From the IMG/VR virus record IMGVR_UViG_3300009024_001300, positions 1-47,164 of that record: 47,164 nt of DNA; one strand, given 5' to 3'. Source of the DNA: a virus. Position numbers and translations under genes: made by a program. This document shows positions 1 through 46,881 of the stretch, in pieces (the stretch's first letter is position 1; every line of letters starts with the position of its first letter). Under the pieces are notes generated by a model. It saw nothing but the letters and a program-made list of their open reading frames with translations. It made no database searches and was not told the DNA's origin.

Positions 1-2
1 CA

Positions 3-842
3 GCAGTAGTAAGACTTCTACAAGAGAACCCTGCCCTCATTAAAGAAGGTATGAAAAGAGAAGTTAGTATTGTGTTTTCTGATCTGAGAGGCTTCACTCC
101 CCTCGGCGAAAGCTTTGGAGATGATGTTAAAGGTTTAACTAAATTAATGAATGGATATATGGATTCAATCACTGAGCCTGTCCTTAAAGCAAATGGAATG
201 GTTATTAAGTATATAGGCGATGCTAGTATGCACATTCACAATGCGCCGATGGAAGATAAAGACCATCCAAAAACAGCTGTTCAAACTGGTTTGAATATGC
301 TACAATCTGTAGAGGAATTTAATGAACAAATCACAAGTGAAGGACGACCACCCATTGGTATGGGTGCTGGGATCAATACTGGGCTTGGTTATCTTGGCGA
401 GATGGGGTCTACCGAGCGACACAGCTACGATGTTCTCGGAGATGCTGTTAGCACAGCTGCACGAATTGAGTCAAAATGTAAGGAATATGGATGCCTACTT
501 TTAGTTGGTGGAGATACAGTAAAGCATTGTAAAAATGATTTCTTTTTTCTTAAGGTAGATGACCTAGCTGTAAAAGGGAAAACTGTAGGTATTGAGATAT
601 ACACTGTTCTTAACCTTAATAAAGATAAATATGTTAAACCGTCACAAATGCACAATGACATGCATATGAATTATCAGAAACAAGATTTTGATAAAGCAAT
701 TAAAATATGTAATGATTTAATGGAATGCTTCGAAGGGAGAATGGCCAATTATTATGACATGTGGATTGAGCGTTGTGAATATATGAAAACACAAAAACTT
801 CCAAAAGATTGGGATGGAATATTCATTGCAACTACCAAGTAA
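3..842 (+). CDS. Class III nucleotidyl cyclase (CHASE2-type catalytic end), 5' truncated by window
   Basis: This catalytic domain would make cAMP (or another cyclic nucleotide) from NTP. Numbering from the Met at position 51, the two metal-binding aspartates are D11 (in FSDLRGFT) and D57 (in KYIGDA). K53 is the adenine-selecting lysine. The block GDAVSTAARIE keeps the transition-state Arg but has Ser where the family has Asn. The frame is open back to base 3, and the upstream residues (RLLQENPALIKEG) match the linker before the cyclase domain in CHASE2 sensor cyclases. The ending KDWDGIFIATTK also matches their C terminus. The real start is therefore outside the window and a membrane sensor part may be missing here. 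This is one of only two plus-strand genes. The family is secure; activity and substrate are inferred. Confidence 0.9.
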   Translation, partial: AVVRLLQENPALIKEGMKREVSIVFSDLRGFTPLGESFGDDVKGLTKLMNGYMDSITEPVLKANGMVIKYIGDASMHIHNAPMEDKDHPKTAVQTGLNMLQSVEEFNEQITSEGRPPIGMGAGINTGLGYLGEMGSTERHSYDVLGDAVSTAARIESKCKEYGCLLLVGGDTVKHCKNDFFFLKVDDLAVKGKTVGIEIYTVLNLNKDKYVKPSQMHNDMHMNYQKQDFDKAIKICNDLMECFEGRMANYYDMWIERCEYMKTQKLPKDWDGIFIATTK

Positions 843-22116: not shown

Positions 22117-22940
22117 TATATTCTCCTTCGGTTTATTGTAGAGGTTAACCCACTACGTTTTTCTTCGACCTCCATATTCATTATTTGACTATTATCAATT
22201 AATGGTTTAGAAGGAGTTTCACGTTCACGTTTAAAAGCTGCAGTACTCACGATTAAAAGCATTATTGCCAATGGGTCGAATACAAATATAATAATTAATA
22301 TTACCCATCGCACTGCCTCGTCATAAAATGAGGCTGCTTCATCACCGTAAATCATATCAGCGATATATTTAATTGGACCTAATTCTGCTTCCTGGTCCAA
22401 CTGTAATTTTTGTATTGGCATTTTCTGTTCACTTAGAGCTACGATATCATCAACTAATATATCTATATCGGCGTTAATGTTATTGCGTTCCTCTGTCTGA
22501 ACTCTGTTTACATAATTTCGGTCTTTTGCTTGACTTGTTTGTAATACATAATCCAAATTTTCTAGCCGACCAGTCAAATTATCCAACTGTAATTGCTTAC
22601 CGTCGAGTCGTTTGTCTATTATGCTTGCTTCAAGAGAATAAGAATCACCAACCAATGCCGAATCAATATGTGCCTTGGAAAGGAATCCAAATATACCCAT
22701 TGAAGTAATAAACATTAACACTACAACAGCTGTAGTAAAATATGCCCTTACTAAGTTATTTATTCGGTCCCATTCATAATGCAACCATGCAGCCGATACC
22801 AATTTGCCAGCCTCTAATACTGTAGCCATCACAAGAACACCTACAGCGGCGCCTGAGAAGATGGTCATTAACCCTACAATACTAAAATAAGCAGCTGTAG
22901 TGGCGAGGGTGAGCGATGTGGCAAGTGTTAACCATTTCAT
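22116..22940 (-). CDS. Membrane protein with coiled-coil domain, 274 residues
   Basis: Three N-terminal hydrophobic helices (residues about 5-25, 28-50, 68-88), then a long soluble, partly coiled-coil domain (95-205), then a C-terminal helix ([20 protein letters not shown]). The layout is shared with membrane proteins of marine T4-like phages. Its ATG overlaps the hemA stop as ATGA. Role unknown; it might sense or block superinfection (speculation). Confidence 0.75.
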
Positions 22941-24139
22941 GACAGTTCTTTAAATGTTTGTGTTAAAGCTGAAACCAAATCTTCCATCATACCATTAGTG
23001 TGCAATGGTGTCGGTGTAATTCTAAGTCGCTCTGTACCCACATCAACTGTTGGGTAATTAATTGGCTGAATATAAATTCCATGTTCGTTTAATAACCTAT
23101 CTGACATTGTTTTTGTTTTATGCGCGTCTCTTACCATTACTGGCAAAATGTGTGTACATGCATCTTTATGAATTTCGATATTATTTTCTTGTAATAGTCC
23201 TTTAAGAGTATGAGCTCGTTCTTGATGCTTTTCTCTTAATTCATTATGTTCCATTAAATAACGAATTGAGGCAATTGAACCTGCACACATTACTGGACTT
23301 AATGATGTTGTAAAAATGAATCCACTAGCGACTGAACGTATAGCATCGAGAATAATGTTATCGCCAACAATGTAACCACCGTGACCACCAAAAGCTTTTC
23401 CCAATGTTCCATTTAGAATATCCACCCTATCTTGTAAACCTAATTTTTCACAATAACCTGCACCAGTTTGGCCATATAAACCAACACCGTGTACTTCATC
23501 AATATAAGTCATTGCATTATATTTGTCTGCTAAATCACAAATCTTTTCAATCGGAGCAACATCGCCGTCCATACTATAGACACTTTCAAAAACAATACAA
23601 GGAACTTTGCCTTCCAATTGACAGGTTTGTAGAGCAAGCTCTAGTTCGTCCATGTCATTATGTTCCCAAATAATTTTATCAGCTCTACTATGTTTAATGC
23701 CCATAATTAATGAAGCATGATTTTTATTATCTGATACGAAACAGATGTTAGGGACTATTCTTTTGAGTGCGATTAAGGTCCATTCGTTTGCAACATAGGC
23801 AGATGTATATAATAGACCGCGTTCTTTTTTATGTAATTCTGCCAATACAGTTTCCAAAGTTACATGGTAATGAGATGTGCCTCCAATATTACGAGTTCCT
23901 CCACTACCTGCACCTGTTTTGTCCAACGCGGTTTGCATTGCATCAATAACATATTTGTTTTGACCCATGCACAAATAATCATTTGAACACCAGTTAACAA
24001 TACTTTTTGGAGAATATGGGGAATACCAAGTTGCCTTTGGAAAATTCCCACGTTCTCTTACGATATCATTAAATATCCTGTATTTGCCGTCTTCCTTTAA
24101 TCCATCAACGACTTCTTGGAATAGCTTTTTATCAATCAT
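22937..24139 (-). CDS. hemA: 5-aminolevulinate synthase (ALAS)
   Basis: A 400-residue PLP enzyme that joins glycine and succinyl-CoA to 5-aminolevulinate, the first step of C4 haem synthesis. PLP-binding lysine K248 lies in GTLGKAFG, D214 and H217 in [11 protein letters not shown]. The loop [11 protein letters not shown] has T82 and N84, the succinyl-CoA specific residues that separate ALAS from its relatives KBL and AONS. R21 is also present. The length equals alphaproteobacterial ALAS. It sits directly after nrdB in one operon and overlaps the next gene by 4 bases. A GAAGG site precedes the ATG. Confidence 0.93.
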
Positions 24140-24153
24140 GTACCTTCGCCTAA

Positions 24154-25362
24154 TTAAGTTGCGTAAGCGTTGTCCCAGCTACCTGATAAACCTGCAACCT
24201 CATATTCGGTCACACGATTTTCAAAGAAGTTTGTATGGTCTGCACCATTCAAAACCCATTCCAACCAAGGTAAAGGATTTTCCTTCACTTTAAAGTTTGG
24301 TTTCATGCCTAGCTGAAGCAATCTTCTGTCTGTAATATATCTTATATATTCTTTTACTTCAGATTTTTCCAAGCCTTCAATGTTACCCATTTCATAAGCA
24401 AGGTCCACAAATTTATCTTCGAGGTCCACAATATTTCTACTGATTTGATAAATGTCCTTTTTAAACTCTTCGTCAACGATACGGGAATGTTCTTTACAGA
24501 ATGCTTTAAATAGTTTTGAGTTACCTTCAACATGAATACTTTCATCACGGATTGACCACTCAACTACCTTACCCATGCCTTTCATTTTACCATAACGTTG
24601 GAAGTTTAAAAGCATTACGAAGGATGCAAATAGAGCAACACCTTCATTAAAGACTGATTTGGCTAGAGCCAGACCTGTACCACGTAATGTGTTCGTATCT
24701 GATTTCATCATGTAATCAATTTTATCTGCCATTTCAGAATATTCTAAGAACGCATGATATTCAGAATCAGGTAAACCTAATGTCTCATTTAATAGTGCAT
24801 AAGCTCTTTGATGAATACCTTCTCTTGCTGCGAATGAACCTAACATATTACGAATTTCATTATTCTTAAACTTAGGAATAAATTGGTCATAATAGTTTTG
24901 GCCAACGGCAACATCGGACTGAGTAAATAATCTTAAAATGTTTGTGATATAATCTTTTTCTACTTGAGTAACCTTGCCACCTTTCCAATCAGATACATCA
25001 TCTGACAAGTCTAGTTCATCTTCAATCCAATGCATCTTTTCATGTCTTGTTGTAATTTCAACAGCCCAAGGATAATGGAATGGCTTATATGTTTCAGAAA
25101 ATTCCATCAGACCACCTGCTTTTTTAATAAGTGTATCTGCAATTGCCATTAGGTCGTTATATGTCCCAATGTGTTTATCATCAATAAAGATTTGTGGTAC
25201 GGATCTTACTTCCTTACCATTACTATGTTTCTGATAAAAAGCAAGTCTTTGCTCTTCGTCGTCTAGTTGAATTTGTGTAAAATCATACCCGTGTTGTGTG
25301 AACCAGGCTTTTGCCTTTTCACAGAAAGGACAGTTCGATTTTGTGTATATTGTTATTTGCAT
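24154..25362 (-). CDS. nrdB: Glutaredoxin-NrdB fusion, ribonucleotide reductase small subunit
   Basis: A 402-residue fusion. Residues 1-80 are a glutaredoxin (CPFC at 11-14, SVPQIFIDD); residues about 85-402 are class I RNR beta. Diiron ligands are D150, E181, H184, E240, E274 and H277 and the radical tyrosine is Y188, with exactly the E. coli spacings (E181 to Y188 seven, E240 to E274 thirty-four). The fused glutaredoxin probably reduces NrdA directly, as shown for a similar fusion in Facklamia. The start at 25362 has AAGGAAT upstream; the frame to 25407 would overlap nrdA. Confidence 0.95.
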
Positions 25363-25381
25363 TTTTATTCCTTGGGTTTTA

Positions 25382-27175
25382 CTAGCCTTCGCAAGCCACG
25401 CATTCATCTTGACTATCCTCTTGGTTAGGTGAACTGAATTGAACTGCTTGTGGATTAATATGGTCGTCTAATTTTTCTCTTTTAATTTTTAAGGCAACAT
25501 TTTCAGCCTTGTTACTTGTTTCTGTTCTTAGATAATACAGTCCTTTACAACCTTGCGCCCATGCTTCATAGTGTACTTTATGTAAAACTGCCTTATCTGC
25601 TCCAGCTGGGAAAAAGACATTGAGTGATTGTCCCTGGCACAGATATTTTTGTCTGTCGCCGGCTAGACGAATCAACGCAAGTTGATCTAGTTCTATTGCT
25701 GTTTTAAATACCTCTTTAACATGCGGGTCGAGAAAGTCCAAATGTTGAACTGACCCACCATTAGTAATTATCATACTCCAAACTTCGTCGGTATTTTTAC
25801 CGATTTTTTCTAGTTCTGTTTCAAGGTATGGATTTTTATTTAGGTGACTACCGACTCTGGTCCTAGAAGTAAATGCATTTGCTTTCCAAGGTTCAATACT
25901 TGGGGATGTATTTACAATCATGGAACTATTTGCGTTTGGTGCAATTGCTAGCATATGCGCGTTACGTCTACCAGTTCCTTCCATGTCTGGGCATTCGCCT
26001 CTTTGTTTACCCATTGTCAATGTAGCTGCTACACTTTCATCTTTGATAAACTTAAAAATTTCTTCGTTAACTCTTGTCGATTCCTCGCTGTCGAAAGGAA
26101 TAGAATGTTTCTGTAAATATGAATGGAAGCCCATAGCACCAAGTCCTAATGACCTTTCTTGTTGTGCGGAAAATTTGGCTCGGGCAATTTCATCACCAGC
26201 ATTGTCTATAAAACTTTGAAGAACATTATCCAAAAATACAATGAGATCTTTAATCATTGATGTATTTTTCCATTCGTCATATTGCTCAACATTAACTGAT
26301 GATAAACAACAAACTGCAGTACGTTCCTCATTCGTTACAAGGTGTATCTCATTACAAAGATTGGAACCCCTAATAGACATGCCCATTGCTTTTTGCGATT
26401 CTGGTAACGCTCTATTTGCTGTGTCAATAAAGTTTAAGTAAGGTTCACCAGTACGATATCTGGTTTCAAGAATTGTTTCCCATAATGTACGAGCCTTAAT
26501 AGTGTCGCGAATTGTTCCATCACTTGGGTCAAGTAAATTCCAGTCAAGTCCCAAGCCTACTGCTTCCATAAAATTATCTGAAATATTTACAGCGTGGTGT
26601 AAATTAAGACATTTACGATTGACATCACCGGTTGGAATTCTCATGTTTAGGAATTCAACAATATCAGGGTGTGAAACATCCATATATGCAGCGTATGAAC
26701 CTTTTCTTGTTCTGCCCTGTCTATAAGCTACCATATCAGCATCTACTGTATGGAGAAATGGCATAGGTCCTGGGGCTTTTTTGGATACAGCTCTTACGTC
26801 CGACCAATGACCTCCGACTCCACCACCCTTAACTGACAGCCATCTAAGTTCTGCTGAATGGTCTATAAGTCCTTCTAATGTGTCCGGCACATAGGTAAGA
26901 AAACATGATATTGGTAATGCCTTTACCTTTTCTCCCTTTAAAGGAGCGTTGGATAGAACAGGGCTAGAGTACATAAACCAACCTTTGGAGACATAATCAT
27001 AAATCCGTTGTGCCAATTTCATATTGCCATTACAATAGGCCACTGCTGACCTTGCAAAGGCCATTTGAGGACTCTTTTCGTCCTCGCGACAATAATAATC
27101 TTTTAATAATTTAAATGATTGCTCACCTAAAATCTTGTCTCTCGTCTTGTCTATTTCTATACCCAAATGCTGCAT
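25382..27175 (-). CDS. nrdA: Ribonucleotide reductase large subunit
   Basis: 597 residues, much shorter than E. coli NrdA (761) because the N-terminal ATP-cone is missing, so dATP overall-activity inhibition is probably lost. Active-site parts are C91 in PISCFLT, N272-C274-E276 in SNLCNEI, CCLSSVNV, the GLYYLRTET tyrosine pair for radical transfer, and a C-terminal CVACEG thiol pair reduced by glutaredoxin. The start chosen has TAGGAGAAAC; the longer frame reaches into thyX. Confidence 0.95.
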   Translation of the reverse strand: MQHLGIEIDKTRDKILGEQSFKLLKDYYCREDEKSPQMAFARSAVAYCNGNMKLAQRIYDYVSKGWFMYSSPVLSNAPLKGEKVKALPISCFLTYVPDTLEGLIDHSAELRWLSVKGGGVGGHWSDVRAVSKKAPGPMPFLHTVDADMVAYRQGRTRKGSYAAYMDVSHPDIVEFLNMRIPTGDVNRKCLNLHHAVNISDNFMEAVGLGLDWNLLDPSDGTIRDTIKARTLWETILETRYRTGEPYLNFIDTANRALPESQKAMGMSIRGSNLCNEIHLVTNEERTAVCCLSSVNVEQYDEWKNTSMIKDLIVFLDNVLQSFIDNAGDEIARAKFSAQQERSLGLGAMGFHSYLQKHSIPFDSEESTRVNEEIFKFIKDESVAATLTMGKQRGECPDMEGTGRRNAHMLAIAPNANSSMIVNTSPSIEPWKANAFTSRTRVGSHLNKNPYLETELEKIGKNTDEVWSMIITNGGSVQHLDFLDPHVKEVFKTAIELDQLALIRLAGDRQKYLCQGQSLNVFFPAGADKAVLHKVHYEAWAQGCKGLYYLRTETSNKAENVALKIKREKLDDHINPQAVQFSSPNQEDSQDECVACEG

Positions 27176-35533: not shown

Positions 35534-37675
35534 TTACTTATTTACGATTTTTAAGATACGCTTTAAGCCAGCTGAATCCTTACTTATCATTGTTTGGTAT
35601 TTTTCTTTGTCCTGTGGCTTTTTCATTGCATCAAACCCACGTAAAAGAGCATCAGCTTCCTGTTTAGACAGTTTTAATTTTTTATTATTTAAGAATTCGA
35701 TTTGGCCTTTGCCATAGTCGGAAATTTTTCTTAATTGTTGAATAGGATTCTTTTTGGCAAGTTTCATATCAGCTGTTGTTGCTCTGATATCAACATCTTT
35801 AACTTGTTTAAAGTCTCTATCGTTTTTAATAGCTCTTAGTGCGTCTTCTTTAGCACCTTCGGTATATGATTTGAATGATTCTTTCTTTGCCATAGTCCTT
35901 TTATTCATATTTTGGTCTACATACTTGGCCTGTGCCTTTCTTGCGCCTTCCTCACCACCTATTTCATATCCCATAAGATATGCATTAGCATGGCCTTTGG
36001 CTGCATTTGGAGTTTTCCAAGACATACTACCAAGATACATTGTTGTACCTTTTTCCTTATGTACAACCTTACCTCTATGACCATCATTAAACTGTGATCT
36101 TTCTGAGTCTAGTTTATAATCATTTGAATCAATAGCTTCATGCATTTCTTCTGATTGTGAATGTCCTAAACGATCTGCTCTTTGTCTTGCAGTTTCACCA
36201 GATCTACCAACACCAGCTCTTTTTGCGTCTCTGTCCTTTTTAACCTGGTCATATTTCTTAATGGAATCACGAGCTGATGTATTCATGCGTTTTGCATGAG
36301 CATCATGTTGGCTTTTTGTTTTATCTCTTTGTTGTTGAGCAAGAGTTGTTTCTTCTATTGCAGTTGGTGCATGATATGATGTTTCGTTACCAATACCAAC
36401 GTGAACACGATCTTTAGTAACACCAAGAACTTTACCAGTCTTGCCATTCTTTAATTTAACTGTTGAACCTTCAGGAAATTTGGCTGACATTTGAGCAATA
36501 TCTTTACGAAGATTTTCGTCTATGGCCTCTTTTTTAGAGATTTTTTTCTGTAGCTTTTCTATATCAGCCTCTCTATTCATCTCTACTTCATTCCAATGAT
36601 CTATTCCTTTTTGATTACCGTCAGCAACTGCTTTCTTTCTTGAATCTTGAGCATCACGAAGCTTCTGTTTCGCTATTTTTAACCTAGCTCCAAGGTATGA
36701 TGGGCTGTCAAAGGCATCTCGTGCAGGATTATGCGTCTTCCTGGCTGGTGCATTACTACCAGTAACTTTAGCTTTAATCTTTCCGGCTGCCTTTTTAATA
36801 GGACTCCAAATCTCGTCAACAGACTCTTTTTTAAATGCACCCATTTTCATGCCTTTAGCATAATCTTCTGCGTCTGCATTCTTATCAAAGCCTGGCATAG
36901 AGCGTATTGCATCTATTACCCTTTTTGATATTCTTCTGTCATCAGTTTGCCAAGCAATTATTTCTTTAGCATATTTCTTTTTGACATCATCTAAAGTCAT
37001 TCCTGTTTCAGCATCACCAAGAACTTTATCTGCTTGGTTATCATCATACCCAAATCCAATATCACCTTTTGAAGTTAACCATTTCTTTATTTGCTCTCTG
37101 CTACCAGTTACGGATATTGTTCCCTCATCTTCATCATAATCATCCACGGTGACATCAAACTCATCTTGAGCGTCGGCTTCAAGGCTGTTGTCGGGTTGAC
37201 CATCAAACGGCATGGTAATGGAAATATCTTTTTCGTTAAGTGTTCCTTCGTTAACAGACTCTTTTCTATATTCGCCCATTCGTAAGCCCATAACAAAGTC
37301 ATCAAACTCATCAGGGTCGTCTGTCTTAATAGCATCTGAACCGTGATAACTAAACATGTCCATTTCGGCAGCATGTGGCAAATCACCATCGCCATCTTGG
37401 AAAGCAATAATCTCTTTTGCCCATTTCTTTTTAATGTCATCTAGACTCATATCATTTTCAGAAATACCTTCTTTACGATCGTTGTTCGCATTTTTCATCA
37501 TATCAGCTATACGAGCTAATGTATTTCTATCCCTATTAGATAATGAAGCTATTTGCTTATCCATCGCAATTTTCTTTAGCGAAGCAGCATAGGCAGCATC
37601 TGATTCTAATTGAACTGTTTGAGTTTTTTCGTTAGAGGATATTGTTCCTTCTAATATTTGTCTAAACTTTTTCAT
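35534..37675 (-). CDS. 713-residue repeat-containing late protein
   Basis: N terminus MKKFRQILEG resembles the capsid-targeting peptide of T4 internal proteins (MKTYQEFIAE). Two direct repeats of about 65 residues lie at 77-143 and 226-288, each DD(I/V)KKK(W/Y)AKEIIA(F/W)Q ... KES(V)(N/D)E. Short ESV(N/D)E, KKEAIDE and KKESFKSYTEG segments recur and could be prohead-protease sites of the LxE/IxE kind (inference). Rest is charged with no enzyme motif. It could be a scaffold, core or internal protein. Confidence 0.75.
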   Translation of the reverse strand: MKKFRQILEGTISSNEKTQTVQLESDAAYAASLKKIAMDKQIASLSNRDRNTLARIADMMKNANNDRKEGISENDMSLDDIKKKWAKEIIAFQDGDGDLPHAAEMDMFSYHGSDAIKTDDPDEFDDFVMGLRMGEYRKESVNEGTLNEKDISITMPFDGQPDNSLEADAQDEFDVTVDDYDEDEGTISVTGSREQIKKWLTSKGDIGFGYDDNQADKVLGDAETGMTLDDVKKKYAKEIIAWQTDDRRISKRVIDAIRSMPGFDKNADAEDYAKGMKMGAFKKESVDEIWSPIKKAAGKIKAKVTGSNAPARKTHNPARDAFDSPSYLGARLKIAKQKLRDAQDSRKKAVADGNQKGIDHWNEVEMNREADIEKLQKKISKKEAIDENLRKDIAQMSAKFPEGSTVKLKNGKTGKVLGVTKDRVHVGIGNETSYHAPTAIEETTLAQQQRDKTKSQHDAHAKRMNTSARDSIKKYDQVKKDRDAKRAGVGRSGETARQRADRLGHSQSEEMHEAIDSNDYKLDSERSQFNDGHRGKVVHKEKGTTMYLGSMSWKTPNAAKGHANAYLMGYEIGGEEGARKAQAKYVDQNMNKRTMAKKESFKSYTEGAKEDALRAIKNDRDFKQVKDVDIRATTADMKLAKKNPIQQLRKISDYGKGQIEFLNNKKLKLSKQEADALLRGFDAMKKPQDKEKYQTMISKDSAGLKRILKIVNK

Positions 37676-37679
37676 CCTT

Positions 37680-39128
37680 TTATTTCCCGTTTTTCTTTAT
37701 TTTTGGTTCGAATTTGGTTGTTATTATATATTTTCTATTAGGGTTAACCATTACATTCATTGTGTTCATAAAATTACGATTTAAAAGCACTGCACTAGTT
37801 CTGTTGGTTCTGTCATCTAATAAAAACTCATAGTCTTTATATTTGTTTCCATTAAATTCAAAATCTAATCTAATGGCATATCTGTCTTCTCTATAATCTT
37901 GCAAACCGCCCTTTTCAACACTTACAACCTTTCGGATAGTATTAGTCATTGTAGTTCCATGATGTGTCCAAGTAACATTTTTTCCTTTAACAGAAATGTC
38001 TGTCGCATGAATACTTGGTGACACTGAACCATTGCCTGTGTCAAACTTAGCTGTCATAGGACCAAGTGGTCCAATGTCGACCATTTCAATATACCCTACC
38101 AAAGTTGGTACAGGCCAGTGAAATAGGTCTTGTTTAAAATGTTCTATAATCTTATTTATTAATGGACGTGTTTTGTTTGCTTTGTCTTGACTACCGGCCA
38201 TTGCGGTTTCGATACCTTTTGTGCCTGGGCTGTGATTTACCTCTAATATGTAAGGAGGTTCTTTTTCACGATTCTTTGAAGGAATAAAATCAACAGCAGC
38301 CCATCTTGCATCTACAGCCTTTGCTGCCAATAGACATTGTTCTATTTCTAATTCTGTAAGTGTGACTTCGGTACCTTCAGCACCTTGTGTGATATTGGAA
38401 CGGAAATCACCTTTTGGTTTGCCTCTTGTCATTGAACCAATGATTTTACCATCAAGAACATGTACACGATAATCCTCATCCATTTCAAGGTATTCTTGAA
38501 TTAATAATGCAGTGGTTGGGTCTTGTTTTGTTATTAATTGGATAAATGATTTAAGTGCAGATTGGTCGTCAATTTTTACAACTCCAACTCCTTCTGAACC
38601 TTCGATTGTTTTCATTATGACAGGAAATTCCCTATCAAGCTGTTTAACTGCTTGTTCGATACCCTCATCTTCTTCATTAGGTATTAGTACAGTTCTAGGT
38701 TGAGTCAATCCAAATTCTTGTAAACGCAAATAAGTTAGATATTTGTCATTACACATTTCAAGTACAGCACGAGTATTACACATTGTACAACCAGCACGCT
38801 CTATCTGTGAAACTTTATCCAACCATGATTTATTATGTCTTACATTACCTCGGACTACGCAAAGTGTATTCTTACCAATAATAAAAGGCTTTTCAGATTC
38901 TCTATTAAGAACAATATAGCTCTTAAGTTTTTCGTCCCAACGAATTTGGCCTCGTTCAACCTCAAAATTAAAGAATGGAATTTTTTGTTCTAAACATTCC
39001 TTTCTTAGGTATGCTGCAGTTCTGAAATGTTCATTTTCTCCTTCTGGAGTCGACGACATAACAACAACGCGGAAATTGTCTGCGAGATCGGTTTTATCTT
39101 CTTTTAAATACGAGGAGAAGCCTTTCAT
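37680..39128 (-). CDS. RimK-type ATP-grasp ligase fused to retropepsin-like protease domain
   Basis: 482 residues. Residues about 120-335 are an ATP-grasp ligase: NDKYLTYLRLQEFGLTQP, VIMKTIEGSEGVGV, YRVHVLDGKIIGSMTRGK, and ILEVNHSPGTKGIE with metal-binding E and N. Residues about 345-470 look like the retropepsin-like domain linked to RimK: FDTGNGSVSPSIHA (DTG 363-365) and the LLNRNFM end. The N terminus MKGFSSYLKE resembles a capsid-targeting peptide. RimK adds Glu to proteins, so it might modify a capsid or host protein. The substrate is unknown, and the fusion is the notable point. Confidence 0.82.
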   Translation of the reverse strand: MKGFSSYLKEDKTDLADNFRVVVMSSTPEGENEHFRTAAYLRKECLEQKIPFFNFEVERGQIRWDEKLKSYIVLNRESEKPFIIGKNTLCVVRGNVRHNKSWLDKVSQIERAGCTMCNTRAVLEMCNDKYLTYLRLQEFGLTQPRTVLIPNEEDEGIEQAVKQLDREFPVIMKTIEGSEGVGVVKIDDQSALKSFIQLITKQDPTTALLIQEYLEMDEDYRVHVLDGKIIGSMTRGKPKGDFRSNITQGAEGTEVTLTELEIEQCLLAAKAVDARWAAVDFIPSKNREKEPPYILEVNHSPGTKGIETAMAGSQDKANKTRPLINKIIEHFKQDLFHWPVPTLVGYIEMVDIGPLGPMTAKFDTGNGSVSPSIHATDISVKGKNVTWTHHGTTMTNTIRKVVSVEKGGLQDYREDRYAIRLDFEFNGNKYKDYEFLLDDRTNRTSAVLLNRNFMNTMNVMVNPNRKYIITTKFEPKIKKNGK

Positions 39129-40106
39129 TTATTTTGTGTATCCTTTTGCGACCATCCAATTAGTCATTGAATCCATTAATTCTTCGTGTGTCATATCTGT
39201 ACCGTTAGCAGTTTTGAGTAAATTCATTAATTCCTCTGTATGCTCTTTGGTCATTCTTTCATTATATGGAAACCCTTTTAAAGGATTATCAATTTGTGAA
39301 ATGTCTAATAGTTTAGGAAATTGAGCTTGAAGGTTCTTCTGCTTTTTATAAGCAAGTTTAGCAACCTTCTCTCTAAATTCTTTTGTTCTGGCATCTATTG
39401 ATTTTTGGAAATCTTTTGTGTACTTAATTTTATCTTTTTCATTAAGGCCTTCCTTGGCAACCAATCTCCATCCGTCCTTTTTCATTTTATCAGCAGTTGT
39501 TCCATCAACCTTGCGCTGATATGTTCCCTTTTTCATAATGTATACTTCACCACCTTCTGTGTGATAACCTTTATCATCACAATGGTCACAACCCTTTCCT
39601 TCACATTTAGAACAACATTCCTTTTCAGTTGTTACTTCTAGTCCTTCTGAAACTGATTCTGCCCAACCACCACCATGGTCCTCTGCAGTTTTAAGTTTAC
39701 CCAGTTCAACGTATAAAGGTTGTAGGTCTATACCTCTGTCATAATCATCTGTTTTACTATAAGTCTTGTCAATCATAAGACCGACTTTAAATGCACTTGA
39801 GCCTTCTGCTGGAGTTGAATAAACGGGTTTCTGTTTGATTTTATTTGCTTTACAATAAGCATCAATCATTTTAACAGCTTTATTAAAGTCCTTTTCATTC
39901 TCTGGCGAAGTGATTCTATCACCTTTACCGCCTCTAAATTGAATGTAGAAGTCGACACAACGAGGATATTTTCTATCAGAATATGGTTTAAATCTTTCTA
40001 TTTTTGTTTTATTCATTTCAGTTTTCCGTTTAATATGTTGACCTGGTGTGTCGGATTGCAATTTACCTCGAGCCTTATCTGTGCCCCAATCGCCTGCTCC
40101 ACTCAT
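39129..40106 (-). CDS. 325-residue late protein with small zinc-ribbon motif
   Basis: Starts MSGAGDWGTDKARGK; the stop of the nucleotidyltransferase gene overlaps it as ATGA. Around residues 170-190 CCSKCEGKGCDHCDDKG forms a DnaJ-like CxxCxGxGC zinc motif. ESVSEG and KEGLNEKD recur as in the neighbouring 713-residue protein. The rest is basic and soluble. No family recognised. Confidence 0.72.
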   Translation of the reverse strand: MSGAGDWGTDKARGKLQSDTPGQHIKRKTEMNKTKIERFKPYSDRKYPRCVDFYIQFRGGKGDRITSPENEKDFNKAVKMIDAYCKANKIKQKPVYSTPAEGSSAFKVGLMIDKTYSKTDDYDRGIDLQPLYVELGKLKTAEDHGGGWAESVSEGLEVTTEKECCSKCEGKGCDHCDDKGYHTEGGEVYIMKKGTYQRKVDGTTADKMKKDGWRLVAKEGLNEKDKIKYTKDFQKSIDARTKEFREKVAKLAYKKQKNLQAQFPKLLDISQIDNPLKGFPYNERMTKEHTEELMNLLKTANGTDMTHEELMDSMTNWMVAKGYTK

Positions 40107-41995
40107 TGTGATTCTGTTTGTATATATGACTCTACCTTGGCTGCAAGATCCTTATCTGCCTTACCCCAAGTACCTTTTGATTTTGTTGCGAAACTATTGA
40201 CTCTAGCTAGACCCCACTGAACTGGAGTAGTTCCTGGTCTGTGACCTGTTTTCCATGCAGCAACGCCTCGGTCAAATACCTTCCTTAAAATTCCTAGTGG
40301 CATTCCTGATTTCTCAGCTTTATCCTTTAATGACTTTTCAGGGTTACCATTTTCAAAAACAAACTCTACAGCATCTGCAAGGTCTGTAACTTCCTTAACA
40401 CAATTTGGTACTTGATTTCCTTTACGGCCTTTTTTCGTACCAACCTGTTTATAACCATCCCAACAAGGATCTGATTCCTTTTTAATGTCAGCTGCTATTT
40501 GTGCTCTTTGGATATCTAATTCTTTTTGTTTTCGGTCCTCATCTCTTGCCTGAGCATACATTTTAAAACGATAATCAAAATTAACTGCCTTATCTGCTCT
40601 TAATAGTTGATGTGGTCGTTTGAGATAAGCCTTTTCATAATTGGTTTCACCAAACATTGCTTTAAACTTATTTGTATGTTTTGATGGTTTGGTTTTTGCT
40701 GTTGCATCACCAGGTGCAGGTTTATATGCCTCTGGGTCATCATCTGCCATTTTAGTTTGTTTTACAAATTGTGCATGTCTTTTGGCTGTTGTACTTTTTG
40801 AGAGTTTACCATCAGGGGAATCATCTTTATAATAACCACTCTTTGCTCTTTTATCAGCAACAGTCATTTTATCCTCTGATTGTAATCTTTGGACAAATGT
40901 AGACGATGTATATAATTGGTGGTTTGTTGATTCGTTTGCGTGAGTTAATGCTTTTTGGACCTCAGGATGTTTTGATAAATTTTTCTTTATTTTATCTATT
41001 TCCTTTTTGGCGTAATTCATATTACCAGCTAAGTCTAATGCAAGTTCGATACCCAATTTAACTTCTTGTTTCTTAGAGGCTTGTTTCGCTTTAGGGTTGG
41101 TCTTATAATATTGTGCAACCTCTCTGCCTGTAAGTTTTGATTTGCCCATTGGGGATAAAGGATCGACCTTACCATTTGCAACACGTTCAGCTAACCAAGC
41201 TTCAACCTTGGCATCCATTTCACCTTCAGCCAAATCCATACCAGTTCTTACATCATCAAATAATTGTTGAGCGATACGTTTATTATTGCCAGGAACACCT
41301 TTTGAGAATGATTTAAAATCATCATCAGCTGCTGCCTGTCTCATTTTACTAGCTGACATTCCAGAAACACCATCTGCATCTGGATCTCTATCACCAGCAG
41401 ATATTACTTCGAGAGTTTTATATGTATAATCTTTACCATTATATTTGTTAAGTAATTTATCAAACTCTCTCAGTCTATCTGAACCAACTACAACAACCAG
41501 ATTATCATAATTCTGCAATTCTTTTGCTACATCTATAATAGTTCTGGATTTTGATTTAATAATATATTTACGACCAAAGAAAGATTGCGCATATTTGAGT
41601 TTTTGGTCATACGATAGTGGATTTTTGTCGGAGTCTTGTGTTTTAGAAAGATACACAAGGGGAACTCCACCACGGTTAATAGCCTCATTAATCACTTTGT
41701 TTACAAGTTTTTCATGCCCTACAGTAGGAGGATTCATTCGGCCGAAAGCAATTACAGCTGTGTCTTTCCTTGCTTCGGAAATTGTTGGTTCAAGATCAAT
41801 ATACTGTGCACCATCAACACGGCCTTTTTCAGTCTTTTTAAGTAACGACCCTTTATTTTTCCTTTCGGAATCTTTATCCTGGTCGCCATTAATACCTTTC
41901 TTCTTTTTAGACTTAACACCTTTCGTAGGTTCTAAGTTATCTTTTTCAGAACCGGCGTCGACTTCGGTTTCGGGTCTATTTTTATCTGGATCCAT
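40103..41995 (-). CDS. Nucleotidyltransferase-like N domain fused to DUF5824
   Basis: 630 residues. After a highly charged N-terminal 75 residues comes a cytidylyltransferase-like (NMNAT-type) Rossmann domain: FGRMNPPTVGH (85-94, the TxGH form of HxGH) and SGMSASKMR (214-219), the second nucleotide motif. C terminus (about 545-625) is DUF5824: GILRKVFDRGVAAWKTGHRPGT, WGLARVNSF, KGTWGKADKDL. The middle is a long charged region. Preceded by an exact late promoter. It may be a virion enzyme or internal protein, with NMN or CTP-type substrate unknown. Confidence 0.82.
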   Translation of the reverse strand: MDPDKNRPETEVDAGSEKDNLEPTKGVKSKKKKGINGDQDKDSERKNKGSLLKKTEKGRVDGAQYIDLEPTISEARKDTAVIAFGRMNPPTVGHEKLVNKVINEAINRGGVPLVYLSKTQDSDKNPLSYDQKLKYAQSFFGRKYIIKSKSRTIIDVAKELQNYDNLVVVVGSDRLREFDKLLNKYNGKDYTYKTLEVISAGDRDPDADGVSGMSASKMRQAAADDDFKSFSKGVPGNNKRIAQQLFDDVRTGMDLAEGEMDAKVEAWLAERVANGKVDPLSPMGKSKLTGREVAQYYKTNPKAKQASKKQEVKLGIELALDLAGNMNYAKKEIDKIKKNLSKHPEVQKALTHANESTNHQLYTSSTFVQRLQSEDKMTVADKRAKSGYYKDDSPDGKLSKSTTAKRHAQFVKQTKMADDDPEAYKPAPGDATAKTKPSKHTNKFKAMFGETNYEKAYLKRPHQLLRADKAVNFDYRFKMYAQARDEDRKQKELDIQRAQIAADIKKESDPCWDGYKQVGTKKGRKGNQVPNCVKEVTDLADAVEFVFENGNPEKSLKDKAEKSGMPLGILRKVFDRGVAAWKTGHRPGTTPVQWGLARVNSFATKSKGTWGKADKDLAAKVESYIQTESQ

Positions 41996-42031: not shown

Positions 42032-42718
42032 TTATTTATAATACTCAGCGAATGACGGTATAAAACTATAATTTCGTGCCGCACTTTCATTCCATATAGT
42101 AGATTGTCTTAACCAACCTAAAGCAGGAGTAGGACTAGCAATTGCTAACGGCACTGCTGTTCTTCGTTGTTGTTTTATAAAGTATGCATTATCGACAGCA
42201 CCAAGCGTACCTCGTGTCTCAATTTCCTCTACAAGAAATTTTGCCGTCTTTTTTGTCATTGCATAGGCATGCGCGCCTTCATGTCCACTAATATTTATTA
42301 AATTTTTTGGTTTACCAGCAGATTTGTGATTATACCTTGTTGGGTCTGTTAATTTATAACCTAATGTGACTATTAAATTGTCTGGAATGTGTAATTCGTT
42401 TATTGGCTGAAGCATTATAGCATCATGTTCCAATACAATTCCAACCTCATCTGGTCCGTCAGCAATCTTTTTCCATATTGCACCATGTCCAGCTGAACAA
42501 GCATTTGCTTTTTGAGCCATGGTAGGTTGATCAAGTATTAAAGGTGGTTCATAATAACTCATTTTAATACCTGTCATACACCAAGCTGCACGACCAGTAA
42601 TATCTTGATAACCTTCAAAATATTCCCAGTTTAAGCCAACATTGTCACAAGAATCGGCGCAAATTTGTGCGTATTCATTACTAATCGGAGTATCAATTTT
42701 AAGAATATATGCTTTCAT
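42032..42718 (-). CDS. GT25-like glycosyltransferase
   Basis: A 228-residue protein with MKAYILKIDTPISNEYA, KANACSAGHGAIWKKI and GIVLEHDAIML, the GT25 pattern of an N-terminal start, conserved Cys/Gly/His region and E-x-D metal site. HAYAMTKKTAKFLVEEI matches the later block. It overlaps its upstream neighbour by one base (TAATG) and belongs to the glycan cluster. Acceptor not known. Confidence 0.75.
   Translation of the reverse strand: MKAYILKIDTPISNEYAQICADSCDNVGLNWEYFEGYQDITGRAAWCMTGIKMSYYEPPLILDQPTMAQKANACSAGHGAIWKKIADGPDEVGIVLEHDAIMLQPINELHIPDNLIVTLGYKLTDPTRYNHKSAGKPKNLINISGHEGAHAYAMTKKTAKFLVEEIETRGTLGAVDNAYFIKQQRRTAVPLAIASPTPALGWLRQSTIWNESAARNYSFIPSFAEYYK
42033..42040 (-). promoter_or_regulatory. 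T4-type late promoter TATAAATA
   Basis: Exact box 38 bases upstream of the 630-residue gene, overlapping the stop region of the GT25-like gene. Confidence 0.7.
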
Positions 42719-43374
42719 TATGTAAGTGCGTAATATAATTCAAAGTCATCTTTAAAACGAGACTGTAAATCTATTAGATCCTGTCCTATGATTTCAATTT
42801 CACCTTCCCTGGTTTTTCTTGTGTCTGTTTTGTGCCTTGGTAATTCATGTTTAAAATCTGAATGTCCAATGTTATGCATAAACGTCATTAATCTATCACC
42901 CAGCTTCTCATATAACCAATAGTCTCCTATTGATTCCCCTCGTATCTTTAATAGGTCTGCCTGTACGATGGCTGCATTCGCGTCATTATTAAAAGCTCCA
43001 TTGGTTACCCAGTTTCTGTATTCTTCAATCGAGGGTGGTGTTCTTGGAGACCTAAACTTTTTATAAAAATAATAAAAGCTTTTCTGTCTATCAATAGGAT
43101 GTCTTAATAATGCAAATGTGTAATAGTCTCGAGCCTGTTCTTCTGTGAGTACACCTTCATTAATTAATTGTTGTACTGTAAAATGGTAAAAAGCATAAGG
43201 TCTGTAACGTGACACAATATCTTCAGATAATGTACCAACAAGCCCTGAATCCTCAACCTCAGTATAAATTGCATCTGGGTCGTCAATATTACGAATAAAG
43301 AAATCTGATAGGCTACTGGAGGCTGTTTTTGGAGTCCTAAGGAATAAAAATTTATATTTGTGCGAAAGATACAT
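42718..43374 (-). CDS. Sulfotransferase
   Basis: 218 residues with the PAPS-binding 5' loop FLRTPKTASSSL (residues about 11-22) and the 3'-phosphate block FALLRHPIDRQKSF. It would transfer sulfate from PAPS to a sugar or other acceptor. Chained with glycosyltransferases on both sides by one-base overlaps, suggesting a sulfated glycan. Confidence 0.8.
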   Translation of the reverse strand: MYLSHKYKFLFLRTPKTASSSLSDFFIRNIDDPDAIYTEVEDSGLVGTLSEDIVSRYRPYAFYHFTVQQLINEGVLTEEQARDYYTFALLRHPIDRQKSFYYFYKKFRSPRTPPSIEEYRNWVTNGAFNNDANAAIVQADLLKIRGESIGDYWLYEKLGDRLMTFMHNIGHSDFKHELPRHKTDTRKTREGEIEIIGQDLIDLQSRFKDDFELYYALT

Positions 43375-44036
43375 TATTCAACTCCCTGCGAATAGTCAAC
43401 ACAATTAAATCCCATACCAGTAGAGCCCCATTTATGGTCAGCAAATACTTTATCAGGTCCATCATATCGTTTTGCACCATTAATATAAAATTGAGGAATA
43501 AAATAATGTGATGGCCAAATTGTTAATATATCTCTATATTGTGGAATAAATTGAGCTAGAAATTCATTACCAGTTGATTTATGTGGTTGTACATGTAAAT
43601 CGCCAGGTCGTAATAATCTTAATGAATCAATTAATGCTTTAACAAGTTCGTTACCTGGATTACATGCAAAAATAGGTTGTACAAAATTAGGTCTACCTTT
43701 TTCGTTTTCAAAGCATGTATATGCATGTTCTGGTGGGCTGTCAAAAAGTTCGTCTGTATTTTCTAAACAAATCATATCTGCTTCAGCGATAAACCCACCT
43801 TGTTCATATAATAATTCATAACGAATCAAATCAGAAACACCGCAGAAAGCCTTTGCTCTATAATAATGTTCAATAAGGTCCTGGTTAATCCACCGACGTT
43901 GCTTTAACATCGCGTCATCAAAAATAGAATATTCCCAATCAGGGTGCTTATCCCTCCAGGTATACATCCATTTAAGAGGAGCAGGCTTTGGCCCTATCCA
44001 TATATGACTAAGTTTCTTTTCAATGTTTATTATCAT
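43374..44036 (-). CDS. Glycosyltransferase with DXD-like site (capsule type)
   Basis: 220 residues from MIINIEKKLSHIWIG, whose ATG overlaps the glyA stop as ATGA. SHIWIGPKPAP, VSDLIRYELLYEQGGF and EADMICLENTDELF are the Gly_transf_sug (PF04488) pattern; here the DXD is EAD. It would add a sugar to a glycan. The frame to 44078 would run into glyA. Confidence 0.78.
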   Translation of the reverse strand: MIINIEKKLSHIWIGPKPAPLKWMYTWRDKHPDWEYSIFDDAMLKQRRWINQDLIEHYYRAKAFCGVSDLIRYELLYEQGGFIAEADMICLENTDELFDSPPEHAYTCFENEKGRPNFVQPIFACNPGNELVKALIDSLRLLRPGDLHVQPHKSTGNEFLAQFIPQYRDILTIWPSHYFIPQFYINGAKRYDGPDKVFADHKWGSTGMGFNCVDYSQGVE

Positions 44037-45172
44037 TTTAAAATATCCGATATCCTTTGTGCTAGGTTTGCAAACCATTCCTCGTCGTGTCCACGAGTTG
44101 TTTCTGCTGCCGTACCAATTCTGATACCACTTGTTTCCATAAAGGGACGAGGGTCATTTGGTACGCCATTTTTATTAACAGTAATACCATTATCTTCTAA
44201 TAAATCTGCTGCTTCTCTACCACTATATTTACTATTACTTAAATCCATTAAAATAATATGTGAATCTGTTCCACCTGTTTGTACTGGTATACCATTCATT
44301 AAAAATACTCTACACATTGCTTGAGCATTTATAATGACTTGTTCTGCATAATCAAAGAATTCTTTGGTATCTGCCTCAATAAAAGCTTGAGCCTTAGCTG
44401 CAATAATATTCATTAATGGACCACCTTGAGTACCTGGGAATATGCCACCATTAATCTTTTTTGTATAATCAGGATTGTTCCATAAGATAATTCCACCACG
44501 AGGTCCTCGTAATGTTTTATGAGTGGTTGAAGTCACTACATCTGCATGAGGTATTGGACTATCATAAGCTCCTCCAGCGATTAGGCCAGAATAATGAGCC
44601 ATATCAACCATAAGTAATGCACCTACTGAATCAGCAATTTCTCTAAATCGTTTCCAATTAATTTGTCTTGGATATGCACTTGCGCCAGCAATAATCATTT
44701 TAGGTTTATGAGTTTCTGCCAATAAAGCAACATTATCATAATCAATCAAACCATTTTCACCAACACCATATGTATGAGCGTCAAACCACTTTCCGGAAAT
44801 AGTAACAGGGGCGCCGTGAGTTAAATGCCCACCACTTGCTAAATCCATACCGAGAATTGTATCACCAACATTTAGGAAGGCTTTCATTACTGCAAGGTTG
44901 GCGTTAGCACCACTATGAGGCTGGACATTTGCAAAATTACAATCGTAAAGATCCTTTAATTTCTCAATGGCCAGAGTTTCAATCTCATCCATATGTTCGC
45001 AACCATTATAGTAACGACGACCTGGATAACCCTCTGCATATTTGTTTGTAAATTCCGAACCACATAATTTCATTACTGCATCAGATGCGAAATTTTCTGA
45101 CGCTATAAGTTCAATCGTTGTTTGTTGACGTTTTAATTCTTTTTGGTAAATTCTATCTATATCAATGTGCAT
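44033..45172 (-). CDS. glyA: Serine hydroxymethyltransferase
   Basis: 379 residues (bacterial enzymes about 417, so a shorter C-terminal domain). PLP lysine K219 is in TSTTHKTLRGPRGG, D190 and H193 in MVDMAHYSGL, ELIASENFAS at the start, and YAEGYPGRRYYNGCE. It converts serine and THF to glycine and methylene-THF, which would feed thymidylate synthase (ThyX, also in this window) and supply glycine for ALAS (HemA). It overlaps its upstream neighbour by 11 bases and sits in the middle of the glycan genes. Confidence 0.93.
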   Translation of the reverse strand: MHIDIDRIYQKELKRQQTTIELIASENFASDAVMKLCGSEFTNKYAEGYPGRRYYNGCEHMDEIETLAIEKLKDLYDCNFANVQPHSGANANLAVMKAFLNVGDTILGMDLASGGHLTHGAPVTISGKWFDAHTYGVGENGLIDYDNVALLAETHKPKMIIAGASAYPRQINWKRFREIADSVGALLMVDMAHYSGLIAGGAYDSPIPHADVVTSTTHKTLRGPRGGIILWNNPDYTKKINGGIFPGTQGGPLMNIIAAKAQAFIEADTKEFFDYAEQVIINAQAMCRVFLMNGIPVQTGGTDSHIILMDLSNSKYSGREAADLLEDNGITVNKNGVPNDPRPFMETSGIRIGTAAETTRGHDEEWFANLAQRISDILK

Positions 45173-45701
45173 TTGTTTTCACTATATAATTATAAGCTGT
45201 TTCAGCGTTATCGTTGCTTTCTAATTGGGTATATTTAATATCTAATTCCTGGAATTGTGCTATAATATCCAGGTCGATCTGAACACTTTGAACTTCATCT
45301 TGTGCTCTTCCACTTTCCTCAAACCCAATCGGTCTTGTTAACATAAAATTTATATTATCATACATATTATAACATTCTAATGCCATCTTGTCAATCAAAT
45401 CTGAATATAAAGGTCCTTCATATAGTTCTCTATATATTGGACTTAATAGAACTGGGGAATCTGTAATTACATAATCCACCTTATCTGCTAATCTTAATAT
45501 TTTTCTGTGTTGATGAGCCAATACCCATAATTGGTCCTTCAGCATAGGAACATTTCCTTCCCACACACATTCCTTAGCGAACTCATCTGTGAGTTCAACA
45601 CTCAGTCCTGCCACTTTCATTTTATAAAATAATCCTGCAGCTGCCGTACTCTTACCAGAGGAAGGACCACCGTAGAAATTAATTATGCGAGTATTTGTCA
45701 C
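45162..45701 (-). CDS. P-loop ATPase/kinase (AAA_28/NadR-like), GTG start
   Basis: 179 residues. The P loop is FYGGPSSGKST (residues about 9-19); ITDSPVLLS is the second nucleotide motif and VLAHQHRKI lies between. Similar proteins are annotated as AAA_28 or NadR/Ttd14-like kinases; the substrate is not known. GTG start with AGAGGTGAATGC upstream. It contains an internal consensus promoter for glyA. Confidence 0.78.
   Translation of the reverse strand: MTNTRIINFYGGPSSGKSTAAAGLFYKMKVAGLSVELTDEFAKECVWEGNVPMLKDQLWVLAHQHRKILRLADKVDYVITDSPVLLSPIYRELYEGPLYSDLIDKMALECYNMYDNINFMLTRPIGFEESGRAQDEVQSVQIDLDIIAQFQELDIKYTQLESNDNAETAYNYIVKTNAH
45366..45394 (-). promoter_or_regulatory. Intragenic sigma70-like promoter, TTGACA-17-TATAAT
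   Basis: Perfect hexamers with a 17-base spacer inside the P-loop gene, about 195 bases upstream of glyA. It could give glyA and the following glycan genes independent early expression. Confidence 0.6.
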
Positions 45702-45716
45702 GCATTCACCTCTTAC

Positions 45717-46283
45717 TTAAGTTTTTTCAACGAACCACAAAAAGTCATCTTCAACAAAATAACCATCTTCACCATACAATTCTATTACTGCCTTTTTAAC
45801 AGTTGGAAAATGTATATCATGACCAATAATCATTCCACCTTTTCGTACCTTTGGAGCCCAAGCTTGTACATCTCTCATTACACCATTATAACTATGGTCA
45901 GCATCAATGAACACAAAGTCTAAACTTTCATCATCAATTGTTTTTGCTGCTTCAGTAGTATAATCTTTAATAATTACTGCTCGGTCTGGATATTGGCCAC
46001 AGAAGGATACCAAATCATTATAATATCTTTCATGATCCCAAGCATGTCCATTTTCACCAGCCGTCCATTGTTCCGGACCATCGTAACCAGGTTGTGCCGC
46101 ATAAAGGTCAACACCAACAAGATGTAAATCGTGACATGTTCTTACCAAATGTTTAAATGTTTCTCCAAGCCATACTCCGAGTTCAGCACCCTTTGTCCAG
46201 CCATTTTTTCTGACATATTTTTCAATGGTCTGCCATCTCCATATATTACCACCATCGTGGCCTCTATCATTAATTCTACCCAT
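45717..46283 (-). CDS. SAM-dependent methyltransferase (class I)
   Basis: 188 residues. GAELGVWLGETFKHL is the SAM-binding motif I and LHLVGVDLYA the acidic end of beta2; SLDFVFIDADHSYNGV is motif IV, typical of the Methyltransf_24 family often acting on sugars or small molecules. It follows the GT29 gene by 1 base. Its acceptor is likely a glycan. Confidence 0.82.
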   Translation of the reverse strand: MGRINDRGHDGGNIWRWQTIEKYVRKNGWTKGAELGVWLGETFKHLVRTCHDLHLVGVDLYAAQPGYDGPEQWTAGENGHAWDHERYYNDLVSFCGQYPDRAVIIKDYTTEAAKTIDDESLDFVFIDADHSYNGVMRDVQAWAPKVRKGGMIIGHDIHFPTVKKAVIELYGEDGYFVEDDFLWFVEKT

Positions 46284-46284
46284 T

Positions 46285-46881
46285 TTAATCTCCTATTAAA
46301 TTAAATCTTTCTTGAGAAAAGAATTTATTTCTGCAATATTCTTCCTCAAATGCATAATCGTGTCTGTAAAAAGAATCCCATCTGTTTACGTCTACCATGT
46401 TTGTGTTATGGTGAAATGTTTTGGTCTTTTTAAAATCAAACCCATATACATTTACTACCGATGGATTCAGCTCATTCAGTAAATATAAACAAGTCAACCC
46501 AGCTGATGGATTGCCTGTCTCTTTTCTACATCTTTGTTTAATGTCCAAACCAAATTCATTGTCCTTATATACAAAGGGACTTTCCTTCGAACCCATATTA
46601 AGATCTAGTTTTAAATAGTTATTACTACTTTCAAACTCTATCATTCGGTTCGGTTTATCTGTTGTCATGCTAGTTGCGTGACGGAGCCAATCCCAAAAGG
46701 CCCAGATATCTATTTTGGTTCCTACTGAATGTCGACGAGAATTGTCGTTATAGAAGATAGCAGAATTGTTAATTCGAATTACTACCTGATGATCATCAAT
46801 ATCACTACCATGTTGTGAGTCAAATAAAGACTCTGCGTTCCCTATAAGGGCAACAGATTTATTTTCAACATAGTTTTCCAT
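46285..46881 (-). CDS. GT29 sialyltransferase-like protein
   Basis: 198 residues with the sialyltransferase L motif VALIGNAESLF ... GSDIDDHQVVIRINNS (residues 10-40), the S motif NPSAGLTCLYLL ... VNVYGFDF (124-150), and a C-terminal HDYAFEE (His and Glu of motif VS). The NxxxxxxD and GNPSAG spacing fits the family that moves sialic acid or a related nonulosonic acid from CMP donors. First gene of the cluster, with its own promoter at 46914. Confidence 0.78.
   Translation of the reverse strand: MENYVENKSVALIGNAESLFDSQHGSDIDDHQVVIRINNSAIFYNDNSRRHSVGTKIDIWAFWDWLRHATSMTTDKPNRMIEFESSNNYLKLDLNMGSKESPFVYKDNEFGLDIKQRCRKETGNPSAGLTCLYLLNELNPSVVNVYGFDFKKTKTFHHNTNMVDVNRWDSFYRHDYAFEEEYCRNKFFSQERFNLIGD

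What the first reader, a model, noticed from the sequence alone, without database searches (positions are those of the whole stretch)
37680..39128. ATP-grasp ligase fused to a retropepsin-like domain
RimK-type glutamate ligases and the retropepsin-like protease family are often genetically linked, but here they are one protein in the late block. It might add amino acids to a capsid or host protein and trim them. The DTG and LLNRNFM ends both look intact.
Basis: partly seen in the sequence, partly recalled or inferred. Interest (0 to 1): 0.7.

Follow-up and report, generated by a model that had tools for sequence, protein, structure and literature searches.

The report
Capsid-tagged phage glutamate ligase–protease hybrid
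A marine phage gene, shared by very many ocean viruses, makes one protein that can probably both add and cut off chains of glutamate on another protein, and it carries an address tag like the one phage T4 uses to load proteins into its head and inject them into the host.

Summary
Window 39128→37680 (minus strand, 482 aa) is one intact ORF. It has a RimK-type ATP-grasp glutamate ligase (PF08443, E 7e-29) and a C-terminal RimB/RloA-like retropepsin domain (PF05618, exactly at cut-off; family profile matches RloA crystal structures, E 2e-7). The order ligase–protease is conserved in 94 of 110 viral loci; all but one of the rest are cut by contig ends. The catalytic DTG and the basic residues that bind polyglutamate in RloA are invariant.

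Residues 1–10 (MKGFSSYLKE) match, in register, the capsid targeting sequence of T4 internal head protein IPIII (MKTYQEFIAE). The four positions shown in T4 to govern targeting (4, 7) and gp21 cleavage (8, 10) are the near-invariant ones (44/44, 44/44, 43/44, 43/44). A diverged homologue was found in virions of Yersinia phage YerA41 by mass spectrometry.

Best reading: a head-packaged, injected polyglutamylation editor. Packaging and activity are inferred, not shown for this family, and the target is unknown. A RimB–RimK hybrid is already published in bacteria with the opposite domain order, so this is a new variant of a known kind. "Late block" is not general: 106 of 110 loci lie by regA/gp43.

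The parts
37680..39128 (-). whole gene, 482 aa RimK-RimB hybrid
39099..39128 (-). residues 1-10 MKGFSSYLKE: T4-type capsid targeting sequence; predicted prohead-protease cut after E10
39075..39098 (-). residues 11-18: variable linker, absent from cellular RimK
38115..39074 (-). residues 19-338: RimK-type ATP-grasp ligase fold (PF08443 core 127-309)
   Evidence: 7qys Z 29.7
37719..38099 (-). residues 344-470: RimB/RloA-like retropepsin domain (PF05618)
38031..38048 (-). K361-F-D363-T-G-N366: catalytic motif plus basic residue two before the Asp (K46 of RloA)
   Evidence: K361 and D363-N366 are 45/45, residue 362 is F in 43 of 45
37881..37883 (-). R416, counterpart of RloA R114 (polyglutamate contact)
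37809..37811 (-). R440, counterpart of RloA R137 (polyglutamate contact)
37767..37787 (-). LLNRNFM, residues 448-454, C-terminal part of the retropepsin domain
40103..41995 (-). upstream gene of the same run: nucleotidyltransferase-like protein with DUF5824
39129..40106 (-). upstream neighbour, abuts the hybrid gene (TAAATG)
35534..37675 (-). downstream neighbour, 713 aa, begins MKKFRQILEG (only loosely tag-like)

Best explanation
[quoted passage not shown] (1) A ten-residue N-terminal capsid targeting sequence carries it into the prohead core. (2) The phage's gp21-type prohead protease cuts after E10 and releases the mature enzyme inside the head. (3) It enters the host with the DNA. (4) The ATP-grasp part adds glutamate to the C-terminus of a target protein, and the retropepsin part binds and cuts glutamate chains, so one polypeptide sets the length or presence of a polyglutamate tail. 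Shown by sequence: both domains with intact catalytic residues, the conserved order, and the tag. Inferred: packaging, cleavage, injection, enzyme activity. The target is unknown; ribosomal protein S6 is the obvious candidate by analogy only. Estimates: domains 0.97, packaging 0.8, polyglutamate chemistry 0.6, host target after injection 0.5.
For: Domains. RimK signatures FRSN and SPGxxGIE; D280, E296, N298 invariant. Polyglutamate-contact residues K361, R416 and R440 are 45/45; RloA R114A and R137A had the strongest effects. Tag: 92 of 95 N-termini carry [FY]xx[FY][ILV]xE; F4 44/44, F/Y7 44/44, I/L8 43/44, E10 43/44; information 3.07 bits in the tag against 1.50 in the linker. These are the positions defined in T4 IPIII: 4 and 7 targeting, 8 and 10 processing, with L/I-X-E as the gp21 motif (PMC9026906). 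A scoring matrix built only from these tags ranks the gp23 cleavage site AFGSFLTE|AE first among about 69,000 six-frame positions in T4. A pattern fixed from the T4 tag hits 9 of 3,971 Mets in seven phage sequences: T4 IPII and IPIII, the hybrid in Mosig and the window, two Melnitz proteins (one counted twice) and two evident chance hits. gp23 of hybrid-bearing phages has AFLSE|A. The tag is an extension ahead of the RimK fold (model 19..338 aligns to RimK 1..291; residues 1-15 pLDDT under 50). The Melnitz ligase-only relative keeps the tag; the free-standing cyanophage RimK of S-CAM8 lacks it. The YerA41 homologue is a 'structural protein' in GenBank and g112 is starred as virion-associated by LC-MS/MS.
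Against: No virion proteomics was found for a tagged member. The YerA41 homologue is in virions but has no recognisable tag, and g112 = YerA41_066 is inferred from gene order next to ribonucleotide reductase. YerA41's virion set also includes many replication enzymes, so presence may be carry-over. The regA-gp43 position in 106 of 110 loci suggests early or middle transcription. The motif after the catalytic Asp is DTGN, not the usual DTGA. The published bacterial RimBK hybrid showed protease activity but no glutamylation of RpsF (PMC11957791). The window's PF05618 score is exactly at cut-off.
Confidence: 0.6

Rival explanations
1. It is made early or in mid-infection and acts only in the infected cell (for example on ribosomes); the N-terminal motif is a helix with another role and the protein is not packaged.
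For: 106 of 110 loci place it between regA and gp43; YerA41 g112 is a middle-expressed gene; the late-promoter motif count in the window is at chance.
Against: The four functional positions of the T4 capsid targeting sequence are conserved while the following linker is not; T4 ip genes also lie outside the head block; the YerA41 homologue is in virions.
Confidence: 0.2
2. It is packaged but acts on the phage's own head proteins during assembly, adding or trimming glutamates on core or capsid fragments whose gp21-made C-termini end in Glu.
For: Tag implies presence in the prohead core; gp21 cleavage leaves C-terminal Glu ends, a natural RimK substrate (inference).
Against: No conserved link to head genes; no matching hybrid was reported from HTVC008M, which has a similar head; ATP is needed at the time of action.
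Confidence: 0.12
3. The ligase makes a small molecule (glutathione-synthetase-like, as annotated in Mosig) rather than a modified protein.
For: GSH-S_ATP also matches (E 3.9e-14); GenBank name in Mosig.
Against: RimK is much nearer by sequence and fold (Z 29.7 against 21.6 for glutathione synthetase) and the protein carries RimK motifs; it is fused to a polyglutamate-type protease domain.
Confidence: 0.06
4. The C-terminal domain is not a working protease but a built-in activator of the ligase, since RimB stimulates RimK.
For: DTGN instead of DTGA; RimB stimulates RimK in vitro (PMC11957791); Melnitz does without the domain.
Against: DTG and the substrate-contact Lys/Arg residues are invariant in 45 of 45 sequences.
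Confidence: 0.12

Closest known systems
Bacterial RimBK hybrid (Desulfotalea DP2392; Little et al. 2025, PMC11957791)
   Same: One polypeptide with a RimB retropepsin and a RimK ATP-grasp domain.
   Different: Opposite order (RimB first; also in the bacterial fused proteins sampled here); cellular; no capsid tag; DTGA not DTGN; protease domains fall in a separate group.
RimK + RimB of Pseudomonas (rimABK operon)
   Same: Same two enzyme families working on one tail: addition and removal of glutamates on RpsF.
   Different: Two separate proteins, cellular, known target; phage scores are far below the RimB and S6-ligase equivalog cut-offs.
T4 internal head proteins IPII/IPIII and Alt
   Same: Ten-residue targeting and cleavage tag in the same register as IPIII; Alt is an injected protein-modifying enzyme.
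   Different: IPs are small proteins not known as enzymes; Alt is an ADP-ribosyltransferase; no glutamate ligase is among T4's internal proteins.
RloA secreted retropepsins (9g58, 9g59; PMC12239564)
   Same: Protease fold family, DTG, conserved Lys/Arg that contact polyglutamate.
   Different: Secreted free-standing proteases; here a domain without its own signal peptide, fused to the ligase.
Yersinia phage YerA41_066 / g112
   Same: Same domain order, 31% identity over residues 37-464, found in virions.
   Different: Other phage lineage; no recognisable T4-type tag; beside ribonucleotide reductase.

Membership tests
RimK-type ATP-grasp ligases | PF08443 over its gathering score | tested here: met
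   101.2 bits against 21
RimK-type ATP-grasp ligases | TIGR00768 subfamily cut-off | tested here: not met
   141.1 bits against 143.4, just short
RimK-type ATP-grasp ligases | RimK fold and metal/ATP residues | tested here: met
   Z 29.7 to 7qys; K173, D280, E296, N298 invariant
RimK, S6 ligase in the strict sense (NF007764) | equivalog cut-off | tested here: not met
   66 bits against 331; target S6 not claimed
RimB/RloA retropepsin-like proteases (PF05618) | profile score | tested here: met
   27.0 against 27, marginal; 9 of 13 related records over the cut-off
RimB/RloA retropepsin-like proteases (PF05618) | DTG plus polyglutamate-contact basic residues | tested here: met
   K361, D363, R416, R440 in 45/45
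RimB/RloA retropepsin-like proteases (PF05618) | Ala after DTG (retropepsin hallmark) | tested here: not met
   Asn366 in 45/45
RimB in the strict sense (NF052261) | equivalog cut-off | tested here: not met
   19.7 bits against 200
Published bacterial RimBK hybrids | RimB at the N-terminus of RimK | tested here: not met
   ligase first, protease last in all 94 full-length phage proteins
T4-type capsid-targeted internal proteins | N-terminal tag with aromatic 4 and 7, I/L 8, E 10 | tested here: met
T4-type capsid-targeted internal proteins | phage has a gp21-type prohead protease | tested here: inconclusive
   annotated in relative Mosig (Mosig_00038); none was found in the 47-kb window, which is a fragment
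T4-type capsid-targeted internal proteins | present in virions, tag removed, injected | not testable with these tools
   only the untagged YerA41 homologue is reported in virions

The most novel reading that the evidence does not exclude
Very many marine T4-like viruses inject a self-contained polyglutamylation editor with their DNA, so that host proteins (perhaps ribosomes) are re-tagged with glutamate before any phage gene is expressed: a kind of virion-borne host takeover parallel to T4 Alt, but with a writer and an eraser in one molecule.
Probability: 0.42. Interest if true: 0.8.

Novelty: new variant of a known kind. Interest (0 to 1): 0.62.

Why it matters
Glutamate tails on bacterial proteins are poorly understood, and I found no report of a phage protein that writes and erases them. 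If the tag works as in T4, each particle brings the enzyme into the cell at time zero. The family is common: at least 568 viral contigs carry the C-terminal domain. It includes an isolate with a cultured SAR11 host (Pelagibacter phage Mosig), so both packaging and target can be tested directly. It also gives a simple sequence rule for finding other injected proteins in marine T4-like phages.

Tried and rejected
(a) Counting gp21-like sites ([LI]xE[AGSN]) in the window's neighbours: mostly not above shuffled sequence. (b) A whole block of tagged proteins: supported in Melnitz (2 of 16 strict, P 3e-4) but not in HTVC008M (0 of 16), and in the window only by the hybrid itself; the looser look-alikes are suggestive only. 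(c) Late promoter TATAAATA lies at 42040-42033 ahead of the upstream gene, but the window has 5 such sites against 5.6 expected; the conserved CTAAATA upstream in relatives lies inside regA coding sequence. (d) First AlphaFold model with 12 sequences was poor (pLDDT 60.7); the 45-sequence model was used (81.6). The PDB fold searches were filled by the ligase domain, so the protease fold rests on the sequence profile and on free-standing viral proteases in the BFVD search. (e) genome contigs gave three hits only, one in an archaeal and one in a Parcubacteria bin, probably stray viral contigs. (f) Ribosomal S6 C-termini from relatives of one such bin were uninformative. (g) The tree was run with YerA41 cut at the wrong DTG, so its place there is not used. 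(h) Iyer et al. 2009 on amidoligases is not held, so an earlier mention of this phage fusion cannot be excluded.

Full report
What is there. The gene lies on the minus strand, 39128 to 37680, 482 codons, with an in-frame stop directly before its ATG. Pfam finds a RimK ATP-grasp domain at 127-309 (E 7e-29) and the retropepsin-like family PF05618 at 344-470, exactly at its cut-off. A profile of the C-terminal domain from ten sequences finds the crystal structures of RloA (9g59 2.3e-7, 9g58 1.2e-6) and 2pma. The ligase is nearest RimK by sequence and fold (7qys Z 29.7; glutathione synthetase 21.6). The AlphaFold model built on 45 sequences has mean pLDDT 81.6, with residues 1-15 of low confidence.

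It is a real, conserved fusion. A first scan gave 26 relatives; a scan with the C-terminal alignment gave at least 568 viral contigs. Among 110 loci inspected, 94 hold the complete ligase-protease protein, 15 are cut by contig ends and one is truncated inside a contig. Isolated phages with it are Pelagibacter phage Mosig (45%), Yersinia phage YerA41 and vB_Yru_GN1 (31%); Methylophilales phage Melnitz has the ligase alone.

Activity is plausible. In 45 diverse sequences the ATP-grasp residues K173, D280, E296 and N298, the DTG and K361, R416, R440 never change. The last three align with RloA K46, R114 and R137; these positions contact polyglutamate in the RloA model, and R114A and R137A had the strongest effect on cleavage (alignment). 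One oddity is Asn instead of Ala after DTG.

The N-terminus is the main new finding. Cellular RimK starts where this protein's residue 19 is. The extra 18 residues are a conserved ten-residue motif and a variable linker (3.07 against 1.50 bits per position). Window MKGFSSYLKE and T4 IPIII MKTYQEFIAE agree in register. In T4 only the first ten residues of IPIII are needed to enter the head; positions 4 and 7 matter for targeting, 8 and 10 for cutting by gp21 at L/I-X-E, and the tag carries foreign proteins into the head and on into the host (review PMC9026906). Those four positions are F in 44/44, F or Y in 44/44, I or L in 43/44, E in 43/44; 92 of 95 N-termini carry the motif.

Controls for the tag. 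A matrix made only from these tags, run over six frames of about 90% of T4, puts the gp23 cleavage site first. A pattern fixed from the T4 tag finds 9 matches among 3,971 Mets in seven phage sequences: T4 IPII and IPIII, the hybrid in Mosig and the window, two proteins of Melnitz (one seen twice) and two evident chance hits. The major capsid proteins of hybrid-bearing phages have the matching site AFLSE|A. The Melnitz ligase-only relative keeps the tag, while a free-standing cyanophage RimK next to psbD does not have it.

Virion evidence. The YerA41 homologue is annotated as structural protein. In the YerA41 paper g112, 'ribosomal protein modification protein', is a middle gene starred as found in purified particles by LC-MS/MS (PMC7354516). 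That g112 is YerA41_066 follows from gene order beside ribonucleotide reductase and is my inference. This homologue lacks the T4-type tag, so it supports packaging of the enzyme, not the tag mechanism.

Genome position. In 106 of 110 loci the gene is in the regA-gp43 replication cluster; only the window, L002 and L043 have it in the block between a nucleotidyltransferase gene and gp61 primase. That block is syntenic with HTVC008M and Melnitz. T4 ip genes are also far from the head genes, so position alone does not decide packaging.

Comparison with the known. Little et al. 2025 describe a bacterial RimBK hybrid with the protease first, active as a protease but without detected RpsF glutamylation (PMC11957791). 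Of seven long fused-candidate ORFs sampled in one bacterial phylum, six carry a ligase in their C-terminal half; five of these show the protease DTGA motif ahead of it, and the sixth has its PF05618 match in the same frame. The phage proteins have the reverse order, and their protease domains form their own group while the bacterial hybrids sit among free-standing bacterial ones; separate fusion events are likely. Other injected phage enzymes such as T4 Alt are well known (PMC5512222). In the open papers searched I found no report of a phage RimK-RimB fusion or of a virion-borne glutamate ligase beyond the YerA41 table entry; Iyer et al. 2009 could not be read.

Verdict. Observation confirmed; interpretation partly right. 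Most likely a head-packaged, injected writer-and-eraser of glutamate tails. The domains and the tag are shown by sequence; packaging, cleavage, injection, activity and target remain to be tested.

Noticed in passing
window 3-842 (+): A class III adenylate/guanylate cyclase catalytic domain (PF00211, E 2.9e-18), cut by the window's left end; unusual in a phage.
   Followed up: no
window 24154-25407 (-): Glutaredoxin fused to the ribonucleotide reductase small chain in one ORF.
   Followed up: no
window 22937-24139 (-): Aminotransferase class I/II family enzyme (PF00155, E 1.9e-63) beside the nucleotide genes; possible auxiliary metabolic gene.
   Followed up: no
window 42032-46881 (-): Cluster of glycosyltransferase-25-like, sulfotransferase, SHMT and glycosyltransferase-29-like genes.
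   Followed up: no
L038 2204-4529 (Melnitz genes 15 and 16): Two adjacent proteins, one a DUF6267 protein, begin with strong T4-type capsid tags (MQGFKTFLSEAK, INFSKYITEDK); candidates for further injected proteins.
   Followed up: partly
L037 11563-12225 (HTVC008M gp129): Zeta-toxin/polynucleotide-kinase-like protein in the same block, starting MIPFILKEG.
   Followed up: no
L171 2273-3163 (Synechococcus phage S-CAM8): Free-standing RimK-like ligase next to psbA/psbD, without protease domain or capsid tag.
   Followed up: partly
window 7404-7937 (-): HD_4 domain protein (PF13328) like stand-alone ppGpp hydrolases.
   Followed up: no
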